Both the position numbers and the translations under genes were made by a program. A stretch of DNA of 64,000 nucleotides from Pyramidobacter sp. C12-8 (lineage in GTDB: Bacteria; Synergistota; Synergistia; Synergistales; Dethiosulfovibrionaceae). How positions within the stretch are numbered: the stretch's first letter is position 1; every line of letters begins with the position of its first letter. Under the pieces are notes generated by a model. The model did no database searches and was not told where the DNA came from. It worked only from the letters and a program-made list of their open reading frames with translations. The DNA lies in NCBI RefSeq assembly GCF_002007215.1, contig NZ_MUHX01000013.1, positions 1 through 64,000 of the forward strand, in the 5' to 3' direction. Positions 1 through 7,590 of the stretch are shown one piece after another.

Positions 1-2
1 AA

Positions 3-134
3 AAATTTAACGGAAAATCTCCTGCAGAGATCTTTATCAACCTGTATGGCGAGGATGTATTGCATTTACTCGGACTCGAACTTATTCCGCCACAGGATAT
101 CTGTTTAAAGCGGACTCTTCTCGCCGGTAAATAA
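3..134 (+). pseudogene. C-terminal remnant of an IS30-like transposase
   Basis: An open frame enters the window and ends at TAA 132-134, giving about 43 residues with NGKSPAEIF, LYGED and LIPPQDICLK. This resembles the C-terminal tail of IS30-family DDE transposases, recalled from memory and not searched. The DDE core lies outside the window, so I cannot tell whether the element is intact upstream. It sits at the left edge of the AT-rich island and marks past transposition there. It could instead be the tail of another DDE family. Confidence 0.5.
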
Positions 135-326
135 CGGCTCCTTTTTAATTTCTTGATTGCATTAACTCTGAACTGAAAATTTTGCTTTCAGTTGAGGATC
201 ACTTTTGTATGCACTTTTTTCGGACAATTTCCTCGTAACAGCTTTTCATCCCCTTGAATTTGTTCCGTTAGCGCAATCTTGATCGTTATTATGTGTTCGT
301 AATGACTGCTTGCTGCTTTTGTCCTG

Positions 327-376
327 TCAAAGTAAATGCAACCCCGTCGCATTTACTTTGACGAGGTTGCATTTAC
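327..376. repeat. Overlapping inverted repeats, possible IS end
   Basis: TCAAAGTAAATGC at 327-339 is perfectly inverted at 349-361, and GTAAATGCAACC at 332-343 is inverted at 365-376, so two hairpins compete. The cluster lies about 190 bp downstream of the transposase tail and just before the IS200 remnant. It may be the terminal inverted repeat of the IS30-like element or a junction of two element ends. Bases 135-326 hold nothing else I recognise. Confidence 0.45.
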
Positions 377-399
377 TCTGAAAATTTACCTTAAAAACG

Positions 400-723
400 T
401 TATGCGGATATAAGGGAGTGGAAATACTGGAGGGGCACTTAATGCCAGATCATATTCATATGCTGGTAAGTATTCCACCGAAATACAATATATCCAGCTT
501 TATGGGATACTTAAAGGGAAAAAGTGCGCTGATGATATTTGATAAGCACGCAAATCTAAAGTATAAATACGGAAATCGTCACTTCTAGGCAGAAGGTTAT
601 TATGTCAGTACAGTAGGTCTAAATGAGGCAACAGTTAGGAAGTACATTCAGGAACAGGAGAAGTATGATATAGCAATGGATAAACTGAGTGTAAAGGAAT
701 ATGAGGACCCCTTTAAGGGGTAG
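400..723 (+). pseudogene. tnpA: Truncated IS200/IS605-type TnpA (HUH transposase) with in-frame amber
   Basis: The frame reads GVEILEGHLMPDHIHMLVSIPPK, then KYGNRHF, a TAG at 586-588, then AEGYYVSTVGLNEATVRKY and DKLSVKEYEDPFKG, ending at TAG 721-723. HIH within the MPDHIHML segment is the HUH motif that holds the metal in single-strand transposases of this family. In the family the position of the TAG is normally Trp (FWAEGYYVSTVG), so one TGG-to-TAG change explains it. The N-terminal third is missing upstream of about base 400. The copy is therefore dead twice over, unless the amber is suppressed. The Tyr nucleophile region after the stop appears intact. Confidence 0.85.
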
Positions 724-863
724 TTGGTATTACAAATGCCCTTTAAAGGGCGGCGACGAGTCAAGGGCATAGTGGCTTGAACAGAGTGAAAGCCAGCGTC
801 TTAGGCGCTGGCCGGTAACTGCCCCCTTATAGGGGCGAGCAAACCACCCGTTTGACGGGTGGT
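708..863 (+). mobile_element. Right-end hairpins of the IS200-type element
   Basis: Four short palindromes follow the tnpA remnant: 708-720 (at the stop codon), 738-751 (GCCCTTTAAAGGGC), 792-798 paired with 806-812 (GCCAGCG/CGCTGGC), and 843-850 paired with 856-863 (ACCACCCG/CGGGTGGT, loop TTTGA). IS200/IS605 elements end in subterminal imperfect hairpins that TnpA recognises, so this block is probably the right end. No matching left end is present. No tnpB is present. Confidence 0.6.
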
Positions 864-901
864 CATGATTATTTTATCTCGAAGGTTACGCATATAAGCT
901 A

Positions 902-930
902 TTGCTTTTTGTATGTCCGCATGCTATGAT
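902..930 (+). promoter_or_regulatory. Promoter of the DUF1413-AAA-protease unit
   Basis: TTGCTT at 902-907 and TATGAT at 925-930 are separated by 17 bp and lie 47 bp before the first start codon. AAACAA at 933-938 and TTGTTT at 953-958 form an inverted repeat across the likely transcription start and could be an operator. Promoter match is seen; the operator is inference. Confidence 0.6.
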
Positions 931-977
931 ATAAACAACATTGTTCATCATATTGTTTACAACGAGGAGGACATGAA

Positions 978-1217
978 ATGGCAACTGCAAACGATCTTTT
1001 AGCTCGGGCTATAGAGGAAACAAAGCATCTGCATACTAATGAAGTTTTTCTTGTACGAGATTTATTTAAAGGCTATGAATGGAACCGAATATCAAGAAGT
1101 GACAGATTGTTATTGGGGACTTTGTTCTTAAACTATGTTCACATCTCTGGAACCCGTTTGGAACCAATCGAAAAAACTTCCTCTGGACAGCAAAAGTATA
1201 AAGTCAGCGGCAATTGA
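978..1217 (+). CDS. Small DUF1413-type protein
   Basis: A 79-residue protein with the pattern FLVRDLFKGYEWNRI then DRLLLGTLFLNYV, which I recognise as the DUF1413 family of small proteins of unknown function. There is no signal peptide or membrane segment, so it is probably cytoplasmic. The start has a strong AGGAGG site nearby. It is the first gene of the AT-rich unit, 52 bp ahead of the AAA+ ATPase, and shares its promoter. A small protein leading a toxic or defensive operon is often a regulator, inhibitor or adaptor, but nothing in the sequence decides between these. Its AT-rich codon use matches the two genes that follow and not the rest of the window. Confidence 0.75.
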   Translation: MATANDLLARAIEETKHLHTNEVFLVRDLFKGYEWNRISRSDRLLLGTLFLNYVHISGTRLEPIEKTSSGQQKYKVSGN

Positions 1218-1269
1218 TGGTTTTATACGCTATCAGAATGACAGCTATTCGAGAGGGAGGATTTACTAT

Positions 1270-2253
1270 ATGAAAGCGGAATTATATAAGAGACTATTTC
1301 GAGCCATTTTTTCCGAAGATGTATCATCATTAAAGAAAATATCCATTACGATCATTCAAGAGGAACGCAAACTCGGTCATAACATTCTTGCAGACTCTTT
1401 AGAAAAAATTTCAATTACCGAAAAGCCAAAATACACTCTGTTTGAGAGCAAAAAAAGCGAAAGTGGATTATCTACTTTGCCAAAGAGCAAGCGTACAAAT
1501 TCACAATTGGTATCGTATATTCCGAGAGAACAATTAAAACATCATATGATTTTACCGAACGAAGTTGAAGAACGCCTTCTTTCGATTGAGCAGGAATATG
1601 TAGCGCGCGAAAGGTTAAAAAAATTCAACCTCGTACCTAAAAGGAAAATACTTCTCTATGGCCCTCCGGGGTGTGGTAAAACTTTAAGCGCCGAACGAAT
1701 TGCATGGAATCTCGGGTTACCACTATTGAAAGTTCGATTCGATTCTTTACTTTCTTCTTACTTTGGAGAGTCAGCATCAAATCTTAGAATGGTATTTGAT
1801 TATTGCAAAAGCGAACCTGTTGTTTTACTTCTTGACGAGTGTGATTTTATCGCTAAATCTCGCATTACAACACAGGATGTTGGCGAAGTTCCTAGAATCG
1901 TCAATATGCTACTCACTTTGTTAGACGAATATGATGCTCCGGGATTGGTTTTAGCCACTACAAATTTGAAAGTGTCTCTTGATGAGGCTCTTTTCCGAAG
2001 ATTCGATGATGTTATTGAAATGCCGATGCCGGGGAAATCAGAACGTAAACGCTTATTGGAGATGACTTTATCTGCAATACCAGTTTCTCCGGATGTTGAT
2101 ATGGATGAAATATCAAATCAATTGGATGGATACTCTGCCGCTAATATTGTTTTGATTGCGCAACGGGCTGCAAAGATTGGTGTTCTTGCAGGGTGCAAAA
2201 AAGTGTGTAACGAACACTTTATAAAAGCATTGGAAGAAAGCTCTAAATTTTAA
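1270..2253 (+). CDS. AAA+ ATPase paired with a subtilase
   Basis: A 327-residue classical AAA+ ATPase. The first 100 residues form a helical domain (QEERKLGHNILADSL) that resembles the N-terminus of ATPases encoded beside S8 peptidases. Then come Walker A GPPGCGKT at residues 131-138, Walker B LLLDECD with D189 and E190, sensor 1 (ATTN) and an arginine-finger segment (LFRRFDD), so ATP hydrolysis and hexamer formation are plausible. I chose ATG 1270 because GGGAGG lies 9 bp upstream; an earlier in-frame start at 1135 would overlap the DUF1413 gene and has no such site. It precedes the protease gene by 19 bp. The likely role is to remodel, sense or feed a substrate to the protease; that is inference. 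FtsH/Lon-type housekeeping is unlikely because no protease or membrane domain is fused. Confidence 0.88.
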   Translation: MKAELYKRLFRAIFSEDVSSLKKISITIIQEERKLGHNILADSLEKISITEKPKYTLFESKKSESGLSTLPKSKRTNSQLVSYIPREQLKHHMILPNEVEERLLSIEQEYVARERLKKFNLVPKRKILLYGPPGCGKTLSAERIAWNLGLPLLKVRFDSLLSSYFGESASNLRMVFDYCKSEPVVLLLDECDFIAKSRITTQDVGEVPRIVNMLLTLLDEYDAPGLVLATTNLKVSLDEALFRRFDDVIEMPMPGKSERKRLLEMTLSAIPVSPDVDMDEISNQLDGYSAANIVLIAQRAAKIGVLAGCKKVCNEHFIKALEESSKF

Positions 2254-2272
2254 TCTGTAAGGAGGTACGACA

Positions 2273-4825
2273 ATGGCAGAGAATAATGACTTTACGCATT
2301 TGCCCCTCCCACTATTATTTCAAGGGAAACCAAAATTGCGTGGTGGCGGCTCAGTATCTGCTCAGACAAATAGGAATACTGCTAATCGAATTGCTCATGG
2401 TGGCTATGTGAAACGTCGCTCTGCTGAATTGTCCCGTTTTTGGAAAGAGCGTCGTGCAGAACGCTCAGAAAACGCCTTACCTGAAATAGAAACTGGCATT
2501 CCCATACTGCTAGAAATAGATCCTTTTGCTGATATTGATTTCCTGCGTGGACTAGGATTTGAAATCGTCTGTGAAATTGAGGAAGGATTTATTATAGTTG
2601 CTACAGAAGATGTTGACCTTTCGGTTTTAAATGAGAAAGCAGATGCTTTTATTGCAAATGTAACCGCAAGGTGCAATTCGCCAGCAAAAGTCTATGCGCT
2701 CTGCGAAGATGGCGATAGGCTTAAACGGGTTTTGTCGAAAGAACTCTACGAAAAATGGACAACTATTTCACCAGATGAAGTATATATAATCGATATTGGT
2801 GTAAGCTGCTGTGGAAACATCGAGTTGCCAAAACGACCCAAGCGAGAAGATGATGAAACTGATGAACACTATTCTGTTCGTGAGCAACGGTGGATAGAAA
2901 AGTTTAGTGCCGCCTATATGACTTGGGACGAAATCAAGATGAAACGAGAGGGAATAATAGAAAATTTTGTTTCTGATTATGATGGTGAAATTATGCAACT
3001 CGCCGATGGTATATCGGAAATGACTGATTTGCCTGATAGTTTCTCGGCACGTTTAAAAATATCTGGTAAATGTTTGCTTGACTTAGTGTTGAATTTTGCA
3101 TATATATTTGAAGTATCCGAAGCTGAAACAATAGTTATGGGAGAGGCCCCCGAAAATAGCGATAGTCTTACCGAAAACGTACAAATTGAGGCTCCTATCC
3201 AATCTGCTCCCATTGTGTGTGTAATGGACAGTGGAGTTCAAGAGGAACATAAGTATTTAGCATCAGCAATTATTAGTGGTGAATCTATCAGTTTGCTCCC
3301 AAATAATACAGGCATAAGTGACGAAGTTGCCGGAGGGGGACATGGAACACGAGTGACTGGTGCAATCTTGTACCCAAAGACAGTTCCTTCAGATGGAGTT
3401 TATCAACTTCCTTGCTGGATTCGTAACATGCGAATTCTTGATGAAAACAATTGCCTGCCAGAAAATGTGTATCCGCCAAAGGCAATTGCTATTGCTGTGC
3501 AGAAATATAATGTTGAGAACCCAATCCCAACTAAAATATTTAATCACTCCATTGGTAGCCGTCGATCTTGTGAAATGAAACACATGACGCCATGGGCGGC
3601 TGAAATTGATAGTCAGTCTTACAATCATGATGTCTTGTTTATACAGGCGGCGGGGAATATTTCCACAGATGTCATATCGGCCTATTGGCAGGCGGGGTAT
3701 CCATATCCTGAATATCTTGACAGAGAGTTATGTAGAATTTCAAATCCGGCGCAGAGCCTACAAGCAATTACCGTAGGATCCGTGTCGGCGGATGAGTTAG
3801 AAACTGATGACTTTATCGCATTGGGAAAGCATATGGAGGCCTCTTCATTCTCACGCTCAGGACCAGGTATTTGGGATGTCTTAAAGCCAGAAGTTGTCGA
3901 ATATGGAGGGACGCACATGTATAATAAAGGGAGTGTCCCACCTCAACTTACAACGCCTCCGGAAGTATGTCCGGAACTAATTCGTAAATCTCCAGAAGGT
4001 CCAGCTTTTGCACGTGATGATGTTGGCACGTCTTTTTCAGCGCCAAAAGTCACCTATATTGCATCACAGGTTGAAAAGGCTTTGCCAGAGTCTCCTGCGT
4101 TGTTGTATAGAGCGTTAATAGCCCAATCTGCCCGGTGGCCCAAGAGTATCAATGAAGTTAGTAAAGAAGAATGTGTTTCTACATTGCGCCATATAGGATA
4201 TGGTGTTCCAGATGTCGAACGTGCTACTCACAATGACGAGTATCGAATAACTTTGGTAACACCGTCCCTTATGGAACTTGGAGACGATGAAGCTCATATT
4301 TTTCAAGTTCCTATTCCGGAAGAATTATCTAATGTTGGTGAAGATTATGACATTTTGGTCGAAGTTACCCTGTCTTACGTAGCGAATCCTCGCCGGACTC
4401 GGCGTTACGTAAAAGGGTATTTATCAACATGGCTAGACTGGTGCTGTAGCCGGATTGGAGAGAATGCGGAGACATTTGCTCGCCGTATCTTTGAAACGGG
4501 CGCTATCATTGACGATGATGGCGATTTTAGCTGGGTACTTGGAGAGGCAACCAATCGGGGTGCAGCGGAAGGATATTCTCGAAAAAATGGTACTCTTCAA
4601 AAGGATTGGTGTATAATCAAATCCAATCAATTGAGTGATGCTTTTTGCATTGCGGTTCGCGGTCACAAAGGTTGGGGAGGCTTATTTAAAGCAAAATATT
4701 CGTTAGCTGTCAGTTTTGAAGCTATCAATCAGGATATATCGGTCTATGGACCGATACGGACTGAAATTGAATTGGCTGTTGAAAACGGAGAAATCGAGGT
4801 TGAAATGCCAGAGAACAAACAGTAA
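2273..4825 (+). CDS. Large subtilisin-like serine protease (S8), AAA-associated
   Basis: An 850-residue cytoplasmic-type subtilase with no signal peptide. The catalytic triad is visible: D319 in VCVMDSGVQ, H357 in GGGHGTRVTG and S587 in GTSFSAPKV; QAAGN supplies the oxyanion Asn. About 300 residues precede the catalytic domain (basic N-terminus TNRNTANRIAHGGYVKRR, then a mixed domain), and about 230 residues follow it with a beta-rich look. Both extra domains are long for a simple secreted subtilisin. A strong AGGAGG site sets the ATG start. The gene shares an operon and codon use with the AAA+ ATPase. All catalytic residues are intact, so it should be active; lack of a propeptide or export signal suggests control by the ATPase or by an intracellular trigger. 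Anti-phage or suicide protease is the leading guess, not shown. Confidence 0.9.
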   Translation: MAENNDFTHLPLPLLFQGKPKLRGGGSVSAQTNRNTANRIAHGGYVKRRSAELSRFWKERRAERSENALPEIETGIPILLEIDPFADIDFLRGLGFEIVCEIEEGFIIVATEDVDLSVLNEKADAFIANVTARCNSPAKVYALCEDGDRLKRVLSKELYEKWTTISPDEVYIIDIGVSCCGNIELPKRPKREDDETDEHYSVREQRWIEKFSAAYMTWDEIKMKREGIIENFVSDYDGEIMQLADGISEMTDLPDSFSARLKISGKCLLDLVLNFAYIFEVSEAETIVMGEAPENSDSLTENVQIEAPIQSAPIVCVMDSGVQEEHKYLASAIISGESISLLPNNTGISDEVAGGGHGTRVTGAILYPKTVPSDGVYQLPCWIRNMRILDENNCLPENVYPPKAIAIAVQKYNVENPIPTKIFNHSIGSRRSCEMKHMTPWAAEIDSQSYNHDVLFIQAAGNISTDVISAYWQAGYPYPEYLDRELCRISNPAQSLQAITVGSVSADELETDDFIALGKHMEASSFSRSGPGIWDVLKPEVVEYGGTHMYNKGSVPPQLTTPPEVCPELIRKSPEGPAFARDDVGTSFSAPKVTYIASQVEKALPESPALLYRALIAQSARWPKSINEVSKEECVSTLRHIGYGVPDVERATHNDEYRITLVTPSLMELGDDEAHIFQVPIPEELSNVGEDYDILVEVTLSYVANPRRTRRYVKGYLSTWLDWCCSRIGENAETFARRIFETGAIIDDDGDFSWVLGEATNRGAAEGYSRKNGTLQKDWCIIKSNQLSDAFCIAVRGHKGWGGLFKAKYSLAVSFEAINQDISVYGPIRTEIELAVENGEIEVEMPENKQ

Positions 4826-4836
4826 TATCTTTATTT

Positions 4837-4868
4837 GGAGGAGAGTCAATCGACTCTCCTCCATTTTT
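4837..4868 (+). terminator. Terminator closing the AAA-protease unit
   Basis: GGAGGAGAGTC at 4837-4847 pairs perfectly with 4852-4862 across a 4-base loop and is followed by ATTTTTC. It starts 11 bp after the protease stop and marks the right end of the AT-rich island; GC-rich DNA begins just after. Confidence 0.9.
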
Positions 4869-4921
4869 CGGGCCAACTTGGCCCGAGGTGCCGGGACAAG
4901 ATTTACTAACCGCCGACAACA

Positions 4922-4952
4922 TTGTGGCCCCTCCTGCCGTAGGCTATATAAT
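4922..4952 (+). promoter_or_regulatory. Candidate promoter for the 5024 gene and pepF
   Basis: TTGTGG at 4922-4927 and a TATATAAT run at 4945-4952 give a 17-19 bp spacer, about 70 bp before the next gene. The -35 match is modest. Confidence 0.5.
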
Positions 4953-5023
4953 CGTGGCGGAGCGTGCGACGAGATGTTCCGGCCCGGGGCGGGCGGAAAA
5001 TTTTTTCGGGGAGATGAAGCTGA

Positions 5024-5707
5024 ATGATGCGTTTAAGATACTGGAGCGCGTTTTTGGCTGCCGCGGCGCAGGAGGCCCGCGCGGCGGGCGAGGCGAAAGC
5101 GGCGGAGCTGCGCCGGACGCTCGACGGTCAGATTCTCGAGGGCTCTTTGTACTCGCTGTGGCGGCGCTGCGTCCGGGGCGAGGGGCCGCAGCGGCTGCAG
5201 GCGGCGTGGAGCGTCCTGCGCGCCCACGTGCCGGGCGGCGATCCGAGCCGCTGGGACGAGGTCGGCTCTTTCGAGCTGCCGTCGGAAACGCCGCGGGCGT
5301 TCATGGTGATCGACGCGCTCTATGCGGCGCTGATTGAACTGCCGCGCCGTGAAGGCGGCGAATGGCTGGCGGCCGGGCTGCTGCGCGATTTCGCGCGCTC
5401 GCCGCACGGGCGTTACGACTTTCTCGGCGTCTGTCCGGCGCCGGTGGCCGAGGCTGTGGCGGATATCGTGGCGCGCACGGGGCTGAGCGGGAACTGGCGG
5501 CCGCGCCGGGTGGTGGGGCGTCTGCCGATCGCCCGCCCGGTGCGCGGCACGGTCACCGATTCCACCGCGCGCGGCGGGGACATGCAGTTCCTCGACGGCG
5601 CGGGCATCCCGGCGGGCAACGGATTTTACGCCTGGGACCGTCCCTCGGGGCGGATCTACCGCATCAGCCTGCACGATCGTAAGCTGTTTTTCATTCCCGG
5701 TTTTTGA
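5024..5707 (+). CDS. Uncharacterised 227-residue protein
   Basis: I do not recognise this protein. It is Arg/Ala-rich, has no clear signal peptide or membrane segment, and opens with a helical Ala-rich stretch (FLAAAAQEARAAGEAKAAELRR). The C-terminal third (FLDGAGIPAGNGFYAWDRPSGRIYRI) looks beta-rich. GGGGAG ends 10 bp before the ATG; a second ATG follows directly. It precedes pepF by 32 bp and is probably cotranscribed with it, but this gives no functional clue. Its GC-rich codon use is that of the host genome, so the horizontally acquired island ends before it. Confidence 0.65.
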   Translation: MMRLRYWSAFLAAAAQEARAAGEAKAAELRRTLDGQILEGSLYSLWRRCVRGEGPQRLQAAWSVLRAHVPGGDPSRWDEVGSFELPSETPRAFMVIDALYAALIELPRREGGEWLAAGLLRDFARSPHGRYDFLGVCPAPVAEAVADIVARTGLSGNWRPRRVVGRLPIARPVRGTVTDSTARGGDMQFLDGAGIPAGNGFYAWDRPSGRIYRISLHDRKLFFIPGF

Positions 5708-5739
5708 GCGTCGGAGAAGATGAGAAAGGGAGTTGCGAA

Positions 5740-7590
5740 ATGACGGAGAACGAAACGAAGGCATCGGGCGTCGCCGGCGACGCGGGCTACGCGGCGCCGC
5801 TGTACGAAACGCGCGCGGAGGTGCCCGAGGCGGCGCGCTGGAAGCTGGAAGACATTTACGCCGCGCCGGCGCAGTGGGAAGCGGAGGCGAAGGAAACGGA
5901 AGCGACGGCGGCGGAACTGGCGGCCTGCCGGGGGCGCGTGATGGACTCGGCCGCGTCGCTGCTGAAGGCGATCACGCTGGACGAGCGGCTGGATTACCTG
6001 CTGGGGCGGCTGTACAGCTACGCGGTGATGCGCAGCCACGAGGACACGGCGGCGGAAGGGCCGAAGGCGCTGGCGGCGCGCGCCACGCAGCTGAGCGTTC
6101 GGGCGGCGGAGGCGTCGGCGTTCCTGTCTCCGGAGATCCTCAGCGCCGACGAGGCGAAGATCGGCGCCTTTCTGGCGCGGGAGCCGAAGCTGGAACTGTA
6201 CCGCCTGATGCTGCGGCGCATCCTGCGCGAGAAGAAGCACGTCCTTTCCGCCGAGCAGGAAGCCGTCATGGCGGCGATGGGCGAGCTGGCCGGGGCCCCC
6301 GACGAGATCTTTTCGATGCTCGCCGACGCGGACATGCAGTTCGGCGAGATCGCCGACGAAAAGGGCGAAAAGCGGCCGCTGACGCAGGAAAGCTACGGCC
6401 GCTACATCTCCTCGCCGGAACGCCGCGTGCGCCGCGAAGCGTTCGAGGGCATCCACCGGACGTTTGCGAAGTTCCGCAACACGCTGGGCGCGGCCTATGC
6501 GGCCAGCGTCAGGAAAGACGTCACCTTCGCGCGCCTGCGCCGCTACGGTTCGGCGCTGGAAGCGTCGCTGTACGGCAACGAGATCCCCGTGTCCGTCTAC
6601 GACGGCCTGGTCGCGGCGGTGAACGGAAAACTGCCGGCGCTGCACGAATACGTGGCGCTGAAGAAAAAAGCCCTCGGCGTGGAACGCATGGAGCCGTGGG
6701 ATTTGTACGCTCCTTTCACGAAGGAACTCAAACGGACGTTCAGCTACGAGACGGCGCAGAAGCTGGTGCTCGAAGCCGTCGCGCCTCTTGGCGAGGAGTA
6801 CGCGCGGGCCATGCGGCGCGCTTTTAGCGAGCGCTGGATCGACGTGTACGAGAACCGCGGCAAGCGCAGCGGCGCCTATTCGTGGGGCTGCTGGGGCGTG
6901 CATCCCTACATGCTGCTCAACTACGGCGGCACGTTCAGCGACGTCTCGACGCTGGCCCACGAGGGCGGGCACTCCATCCACACGTGGATGTCCAACGCCG
7001 CCCAGCCGCAGGTCTACGCCGGCTACACGCTGTTCGTCGCCGAGGTCGCCAGCACGGTCAACGAGACGCTGCTGGCGGAGCATCTGCTGGGGAACACGGA
7101 CGACCGCGACGAGAAAATCTTTCTGCTGAGCCAGCAGCTCGAGCTGATCCGCCTGACCATCTACCGCCAGACGCTGTTCGCCGAGTTCGAACGCGACGCG
7201 CATGCTCTGGCCGAAAAGGGCGAGCCCCTGACGCCGGAGCTGCTGAACCGTATGTGGAGCGAGCTGTACACGCGCTACTACGGCGAAGAAGTCGGCGCCA
7301 ATCCCGACCTGGCCGCGGAGTGGTCGCGCATCCCGCACTTTTACAACGCCTTTTACGTTTATCAGTACGCCACCAGCCTTGCGGCGGCGCTGGCGCTGGT
7401 CGACCGCATCCTCGCCGGCGGGCGCGCCGAGCGCGACGCCTATCTGAACCTGCTGCGGGGCGGCTGCTCGAAAGACCCGATCAGCCTGCTGCGCGACGCC
7501 GGCATCGATATGAGCACGTCCGAGCCGGTGGAGCGGGCGCTGGCCGTGTTCGGGCGCAAAACGGCCGAGCTGAGGGGACTGCTGCGGTAA
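5740..7590 (+). CDS. pepF: Oligoendopeptidase F (M3 metallopeptidase)
   Basis: A 616-residue cytosolic zinc endopeptidase that cuts imported oligopeptides. The M3 zinc site HEGGH is at residues 407-411, followed by a Glu-bearing helix (FVAEVASTVNETLLAEHLL) that supplies the third ligand. Length fits PepF (about 600). ATG 5740 is preceded by GGGAG with good spacing; an in-frame start 12 codons earlier would overlap the upstream gene and lacks such a site. The peptide importer and PepT further along the window fit the same peptide-degrading lifestyle. A hairpin with a T-run follows the gene. Confidence 0.95.
   Translation: MTENETKASGVAGDAGYAAPLYETRAEVPEAARWKLEDIYAAPAQWEAEAKETEATAAELAACRGRVMDSAASLLKAITLDERLDYLLGRLYSYAVMRSHEDTAAEGPKALAARATQLSVRAAEASAFLSPEILSADEAKIGAFLAREPKLELYRLMLRRILREKKHVLSAEQEAVMAAMGELAGAPDEIFSMLADADMQFGEIADEKGEKRPLTQESYGRYISSPERRVRREAFEGIHRTFAKFRNTLGAAYAASVRKDVTFARLRRYGSALEASLYGNEIPVSVYDGLVAAVNGKLPALHEYVALKKKALGVERMEPWDLYAPFTKELKRTFSYETAQKLVLEAVAPLGEEYARAMRRAFSERWIDVYENRGKRSGAYSWGCWGVHPYMLLNYGGTFSDVSTLAHEGGHSIHTWMSNAAQPQVYAGYTLFVAEVASTVNETLLAEHLLGNTDDRDEKIFLLSQQLELIRLTIYRQTLFAEFERDAHALAEKGEPLTPELLNRMWSELYTRYYGEEVGANPDLAAEWSRIPHFYNAFYVYQYATSLAAALALVDRILAGGRAERDAYLNLLRGGCSKDPISLLRDAGIDMSTSEPVERALAVFGRKTAELRGLLR

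What the first reader, a model, noticed from the sequence alone, without database searches (positions are those of the whole stretch)
900..4868. Three-gene AT-rich island: DUF1413 protein, AAA+ ATPase, large intracellular subtilase
One promoter, tight spacing, one terminator and an AT-rich composition unlike the flanking genome mark a transferred unit. The ATPase has intact Walker A and B motifs and the protease an intact D319/H357/S587 triad without an export signal. From memory, AAA+/S8 pairs recur in mobile islands and are suspected of defence, but I do not recall a described three-gene form with DUF1413. A plausible model is an ATPase-gated suicide protease with DUF1413 as sensor, inhibitor or target adaptor.
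Basis: partly seen in the sequence, partly recalled or inferred. Interest (0 to 1): 0.8.

Follow-up and report, generated by a model that had tools for sequence, protein, structure and literature searches.

The report
Phage-defence operon led by swappable regulator
This is a transferred copy of a known bacterial suicide or anti-phage gene pair (IetAS), and the small gene in front of it looks like a DNA-binding switch that, with the same short palindrome in its promoter, also heads many other phage-defence and some drug-resistance operons on mobile elements.

Summary
In detail: three tight co-directional genes at 38-46% G+C in a ~62% G+C genome, intact AAA+ motifs, intact D319/H357/S587, one terminator. 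The pair is not new: it is IetA/IetS (PADLOC 1.5e-72 and 1.7e-51), experimentally a toxin-antitoxin pair (SGI1 sgiAT, mycoplasma A132/T133, Ti plasmid ietAS) and catalogued as anti-phage. What is new is the first gene. It has the fold of LP1413 (6BTC, top PDB match), a winged-helix single-stranded-DNA binder from SCCmec. It is present in all 7 readable relatives with IetS at least 69% identical, and absent from IetAS at 58% identity or less. Its subfamily carries a palindrome, AACAAYRTTGTT, just downstream of the promoter -10, in 15 of 20 non-redundant loci (0.0003 expected per locus). The same palindrome + DUF1413 leader, usually behind tandem large serine recombinases, heads other cargo: Mza, Gabija, Dodola, Lamassu, Qat, McrBC-like, candidate systems, and the ant(6)-sat4-aphA3 resistance cluster. 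Best reading: DUF1413 is a modular autoregulator of exchangeable mobile operons, here driving IetAS. Binding and phage phenotype are untested.

The parts
1..392 (.). End of an IS element present about 15 times in this genome and about as often in the same-species genome G053 (IS30-type by eye); contig break
412..890 (+). Degenerate IS200/IS605-like TnpA remnant (in-frame stop at about 587) and its hairpin-rich end
   Evidence: sequence reading; weak match to G046; family not confirmed by HMM
852..4930 (+). Transferred unit shared with Faecalibacterium sp. I4-3-84; host-type DNA resumes at 4930
902..907 (+). -35 element TTGCTT (weak; 17-bp spacer)
   Evidence: conserved position in 8 IetAS loci
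925..930 (+). -10 element TATGAT, extended TGcTATGAT
934..945 (.). Palindrome AACAACATTGTT directly after the -10: proposed operator of DUF1413
   Evidence: 5 sites in the 2.67-Mb genome
953..957 (+). Additional half-site TTGTT (proposed)
   Evidence: sequence reading
978..1217 (+). DUF1413 protein, 79 aa, winged-helix fold (AlphaFold2 pLDDT 92), proposed autoregulator
1270..2253 (+). IetA, AAA+ ATPase, 327 aa (antitoxin by homology)
2273..4825 (+). IetS, S8 subtilase, 850 aa, D319/H357/S587 (toxin/effector by homology)
4836..4863 (+). Intrinsic terminator
4916..4925 (.). Second ACAACATTGT at the right edge of the unit, unexplained

Best explanation
A horizontally acquired IetAS toxin-antitoxin/anti-phage operon under the control of a DUF1413 winged-helix autoregulator. 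DUF1413, the first gene product, binds the palindrome AACAAYRTTGTT at the start site of its own promoter and holds the operon low (inferred). IetA keeps the subtilase IetS harmless, and when IetA or the repressed state is disturbed by an incoming element, IetS cleaves cell proteins and stops the cell (toxin and antitoxin roles shown for homologues, inferred here). DUF1413 is not specific to IetAS: with its promoter-operator it is a modular leader behind which different defence or resistance operons are exchanged on mobile elements, mostly with tandem large serine recombinases (cargo exchange shown by sequence comparison).
For: IetA/IetS identity: PADLOC 1.5e-72 and 1.7e-51; NCBIfam anti-phage IteA/IteS 2.9e-61 and 1.3e-36, below equivalog cut-offs. 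Homologous pairs are functional TA systems (PMC5006074, PMC8562856). DUF1413 lies upstream in all 7 relatives with readable upstream DNA and IetS >=69% identical; identities of the three proteins fall together (69-70, 82, 69% for L007/L010). AlphaFold2 pLDDT 92, winged-helix topology, top PDB match LP1413 6BTC, TM 0.72. Palindrome in 34 of 40 subfamily loci and 15 of 20 non-redundant upstreams against 0.000275 expected per locus; other sites 9 in 522 kb; absent upstream of IetA where DUF1413 is absent and absent in distant DUF1413. Other cargo: Mza, Gabija, Dodola, Lamassu, Qat, HEC-06-like, PDC-M46, PDC-S15, MTase systems. 12 of 22 readable non-IetAS loci had a strong PADLOC hit, against 1 of 9 distant DUF1413 controls (Fisher p 0.03). 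Near-identical leader, different cargo: L082/L084/L120, 95-97% up to DUF1413 and nothing alignable after it.
Against: No binding data. The only studied family member, LP1413, is a monomeric ssDNA binder, and 79 aa is small for a dimeric repressor. 5 of 20 non-redundant upstreams lack a strict palindrome (one IS-cut, one near a contig edge, one with a single mismatch, two real exceptions). IetAS at <=58% identity occurs without DUF1413, so it is not required by the pair. A second palindrome copy at 4916 is not explained by a repressor. The control set for defence cargo is small, and the viral-contig loci come from a collection biased to mobile DNA.
Confidence: 0.7

Rival explanations
1. ssDNA-titrated repressor: DUF1413 both binds the operator and, like LP1413, binds single-stranded DNA; ssDNA made during phage replication or conjugative entry pulls it off the promoter and switches on IetAS (or whatever cargo follows).
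For: Fold match to the ssDNA-binding LP1413 (PMC6851490); operator-like palindrome; repeated association with defence cargo.
Against: No test of ssDNA binding for this subfamily; about 16% structure-aligned identity to LP1413.
Confidence: 0.25
2. Addiction/stabilisation module: IetAS stabilises a mobile element by post-segregational killing and phage defence is secondary.
For: pTiC58 and SGI1 homologues do this; ParA/ParB genes near L002 and ParB near L007, integrase near L010, ParAB beside the Planctomyces plasmid copy.
Against: No replicon, conjugation or integrase genes were seen beside the window copy; IetAS is catalogued as anti-phage. The two roles are not exclusive.
Confidence: 0.4
3. 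The palindrome is a recombination site rather than an operator, and DUF1413 is a recombination or ssDNA accessory of the mobile element.
For: The site lies between tandem serine recombinases and cargo; a second copy lies at the right edge of the window unit, 2 of only 5 copies in the genome.
Against: Cargo changes downstream of DUF1413, not at the palindrome. The site sits at a nearly fixed place relative to -10 and start codon. Other IetAS copies have no strict second site within 600 bp, and almost none of the other loci do.
Confidence: 0.12
4. DUF1413 acts directly on IetA/IetS as inhibitor, sensor or adaptor.
For: Constant presence and co-divergence within the close IetAS clade.
Against: The same subfamily heads unrelated systems; IetAS homologues lack it.
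Confidence: 0.07

Closest known systems
IetAS (ietA/ietS of Ti plasmid pTiC58; anti-phage entry in PADLOC and NCBIfam as IteA/IteS)
   Same: AAA+ ATPase followed by S8 subtilase, same order, intact motifs, mobile context
   Different: Divergent (about 25% to rhizobial plasmid IetS), scores below NCBI equivalog cut-offs, and carries a DUF1413 leader with operator-like palindrome
SgiAT of Salmonella genomic island 1 and A132/T133 of Mycoplasma mycoides
   Same: ATPase antitoxin plus subtilase toxin, experimentally shown (PMC5006074, PMC8562856)
   Different: Described as two-gene modules; no DUF1413 mentioned in the passages read
LP1413 of SCCmec (PDB 6BTC)
   Same: DUF1413 winged-helix fold, small protein at the start of an operon of a mobile element
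   Different: Shown to bind ssDNA and paired with the Cch helicase; about 16% identity in the structural alignment; no operator role in the passages read
Leader regulators of defence operons such as BrxR/CapW (from memory)
   Same: Small operon-leading DNA-binding protein shared between different defence systems
   Different: Unrelated protein family (WYL-type, from memory)

Membership tests
IetAS | AAA+ ATPase with intact Walker A/B of the IetA family | tested here: met
   PADLOC IetA 1.5e-72, motifs at 131 and 186
IetAS | Adjacent downstream S8 subtilase of the IetS family with D/H/S triad | tested here: met
   PADLOC IetS 1.7e-51, D319 H357 S587
IetAS | NCBIfam equivalog cut-offs for IteA/IteS (an annotation rule, stricter than family membership) | tested here: not met
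   207.7 of 510 bits and 126.2 of 900 bits: a divergent relative, not an equivalog by that rule; filed as a divergent branch on the PADLOC matches
IetAS | Subtilase toxic, neutralised by the ATPase | not testable with these tools
   needs expression
IetAS | Anti-phage activity | not testable with these tools
   needs phage challenge
DUF1413 / LP1413 | Sequence match to Pfam DUF1413 and winged-helix fold | tested here: met
   5.6e-19; model matches 6BTC first
DUF1413 / LP1413 | ssDNA binding | not testable with these tools
   needs a gel shift
Autoregulated operon leader | Conserved inverted repeat at the promoter, linked to the regulator gene rather than the cargo | tested here: met
Autoregulated operon leader | Regulator binds the repeat and changes transcription | not testable with these tools
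   needs binding and reporter assays

The most novel reading that the evidence does not exclude
A subfamily of DUF1413 is a portable, operon-leading switch that binds a conserved palindrome and is titrated by single-stranded DNA, so that one sensor-regulator controls many interchangeable defence operons (IetAS, Gabija, Lamassu, Mza, Dodola, Qat and others) on serine-recombinase elements.
Probability: 0.25. Interest if true: 0.8.

Novelty: new variant of a known kind. Interest (0 to 1): 0.6.

Why it matters
How mobile defence operons are kept silent and then switched on is largely open. A single 79-aa regulator with a recognisable operator in front of about ten different defence systems makes that testable with one protein and one promoter. 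It also offers a way to find uncharacterised defence operons: read what follows a palindrome-DUF1413 leader.

Tried and rejected
DUF1413 as an IetAS-specific partner: rejected as the main reading, because it heads unrelated cargo. Palindrome as attachment site: disfavoured (cargo exchange occurs downstream of DUF1413). AlphaFold2 of IetS: too poor to use (pLDDT 39). Profile search of the PDB by sequence with DUF1413: no hit; only the fold search found 6BTC. Rfam on 1-6000: nothing. Papers on DUF1413: none on defence in the library. IetS in phages: only distant matches. One DUF1413 hit on a Paraclostridium sordellii plasmid was not fetched. The SCCmec LP1413 promoter itself could not be fetched, so whether it carries the palindrome is unknown.

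Full report
What is there. Window 978-4825 holds three co-directional genes: a 79-aa DUF1413 protein, a 327-aa AAA+ ATPase and an 850-aa S8 subtilase. Gaps are 52 and 19 bases, and a 12-bp-stem terminator follows at 4836-4863. G+C is 38-46% against 55-72% in the rest of the window. The catalytic triad D319/H357/S587 and the AAA+ motifs are intact. The segment is found once in its genome, and its protease is absent from the same-species genome G053 and from two other genomes of the genus. Homology with a Faecalibacterium copy runs from 852 to 4947, and host-type DNA seen in two congeners starts at 4930. The unit is therefore about 852-4930. To its left lie an IS200-like remnant and the end of an IS found about 15 times in the genome, which is also the contig edge.

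What the pair is. The ATPase and protease match the PADLOC models IetA (1.5e-72) and IetS (1.7e-51) and, below the equivalog cut-offs, the NCBI anti-phage models IteA and IteS. Relatives have been shown to be toxin (protease) and antitoxin (ATPase) pairs: SGI1 sgiAT (PMC5006074) and the mycoplasma A132/T133 pair (PMC8562856). Both papers trace the family to the Ti plasmid pTiC58 (Yamamoto 2009, cited there). Rhizobial plasmid relatives share only about 25% identity with this IetS, so this is a divergent branch.

How constant DUF1413 is. A scan of GTDB species genomes gave 12 loci. In all seven with IetS at least 69% identical and readable upstream DNA, DUF1413 lies directly in front; a Megamonas copy at 58% lacks it. 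It is also absent from G040 (56%), from cyanobacterial, Planctomyces and Burkholderia plasmids (about 40%) and from four viral-collection contigs. The Burkholderia copy has another small annotated DNA-binding regulator in the same place. In 758 clostridial genomes searched with the IetS alignment, no DUF1413-free intact member of the close clade appeared. The triad is therefore a clade-level unit, not a general form of IetAS.

What DUF1413 is. AlphaFold2 gives a confident winged helix (pLDDT 92) whose best solved match is LP1413 of SCCmec, 6BTC. LP1413 is a monomeric single-stranded-DNA binder encoded with the Cch helicase (PMC6851490, PMC7581432).

The palindrome. The promoter of the unit is conserved where the surrounding DNA is not. 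Just after the -10 sits AACAACATTGTT at 934-945. Every close relative has AACAAYRTTGTT or its 10-bp core at the same place, 42-44 bases before the start codon. The same element is found in front of DUF1413 genes of the same subfamily that have nothing to do with IetAS. In 40 subfamily loci 34 carry it strictly; after removing upstream regions at least 80% alike, 15 of 20 do, against 0.000275 expected per locus from shuffles. Two of the five exceptions are readily explained (an IS-cut copy, a copy beside a contig end), one has a single mismatch, and two are real. Nine other sites occur in 522 kb of the same loci. Distant DUF1413 proteins lack it, and so do IetAS operons without DUF1413. Across the non-redundant loci it follows a -10 at 3-9 bases, usually with a TTG-type -35 17 bases further up (by eye). 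This is the place of a repressor site, linked to DUF1413 and not to the cargo. Binding itself is inferred. The subfamily members are related, so the loci are not fully independent, but upstream regions that otherwise do not align still share the element.

Exchangeable cargo. Sampling viral contigs and 786 clostridial genomes shows the DUF1413 leader typically right behind one to three large serine recombinase genes. Downstream lie Mza (L077), Gabija (L122, L123), Dodola plus Gabija (L076), Lamassu (L075, L121), Qat (L119), PDC-M46 (L080), HEC-06-like (L082), an FRG/PDC-S15 gene (L089), methylase-based systems (L124, L125) and McrC (L120). It also heads the ant(6)-sat4-aphA3 resistance cluster in enterococci, staphylococci and streptococci and a two-component system (L081). 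Twelve of 22 readable non-IetAS loci had a strong PADLOC hit; of nine distant DUF1413 controls one did (Fisher p = 0.03, a small control). L082, L084 and L120 are 95-97% identical through the recombinase end and DUF1413 and unalignable after it: cargo is exchanged downstream of DUF1413, which stays with the element. A tree of DUF1413 shows unlike cargo on neighbouring branches.

How it most likely works. DUF1413 binds its own promoter and limits expression (inferred, about 0.7). IetA restrains IetS, and loss of that restraint lets IetS degrade cell proteins and arrest the cell (toxin and antitoxin roles shown for homologues, inferred here). Whether the trigger is a phage, a competing element or loss of the island is not decided; the flanks of other copies (ParA/ParB, integrase) fit stabilisation of mobile DNA as well as defence. 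Because the fold binds single strands in SCCmec, induction by ssDNA titration is an attractive but untested addition.

Verdict. Observation confirmed. The pair is known; the DUF1413 leader with its palindrome, shared by many defence operons, is the new and testable part. No paper in the searched library links DUF1413 to defence, but most subscription papers and bioRxiv preprints are not covered.

Noticed in passing
window 4916-4925: Second ACAACATTGT at the right edge of the transferred unit; only 5 such sites in the 2.67-Mb genome, two of them bracket the island. L002 has GCAATATTGT at the same place; other copies have no strict site within 600 bp.
   Followed up: partly
window 1-392: IS element end (IS30-type by eye) found about 15 times in this genome and about as often in the same-species genome G053; many contigs of the assembly begin or end in it.
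   Followed up: partly
window 412-890: IS200/IS605-like TnpA remnant with an in-frame stop and hairpin-rich end directly upstream of the unit.
   Followed up: no
L060:5001-5246 (Enterococcus faecium pRUM) and L091: Copies of the resistance-cluster DUF1413 whose promoter and palindrome were cut off carry a change of the invariant tryptophan (GYVWNRI to GYVGNRI), as if decaying once the operator is lost.
   Followed up: no
L079:3474-4472 and L085:6282-7280: Unknown 332-aa protein shared as first or second cargo gene of two DUF1413 elements; no Pfam (L085 copy) or PADLOC (L079 copy) match; candidate new defence gene.
   Followed up: partly
L015 (Planctomyces plasmid pPL62-2): IetS relative directly behind ParA/ParB with no annotated IetA between them and no IetA match by tblastn.
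   Followed up: no
L009 (Oribacterium): The IetA and IetS reading frames are each split in two overlapping frames while DUF1413 and the palindrome are intact.
   Followed up: no
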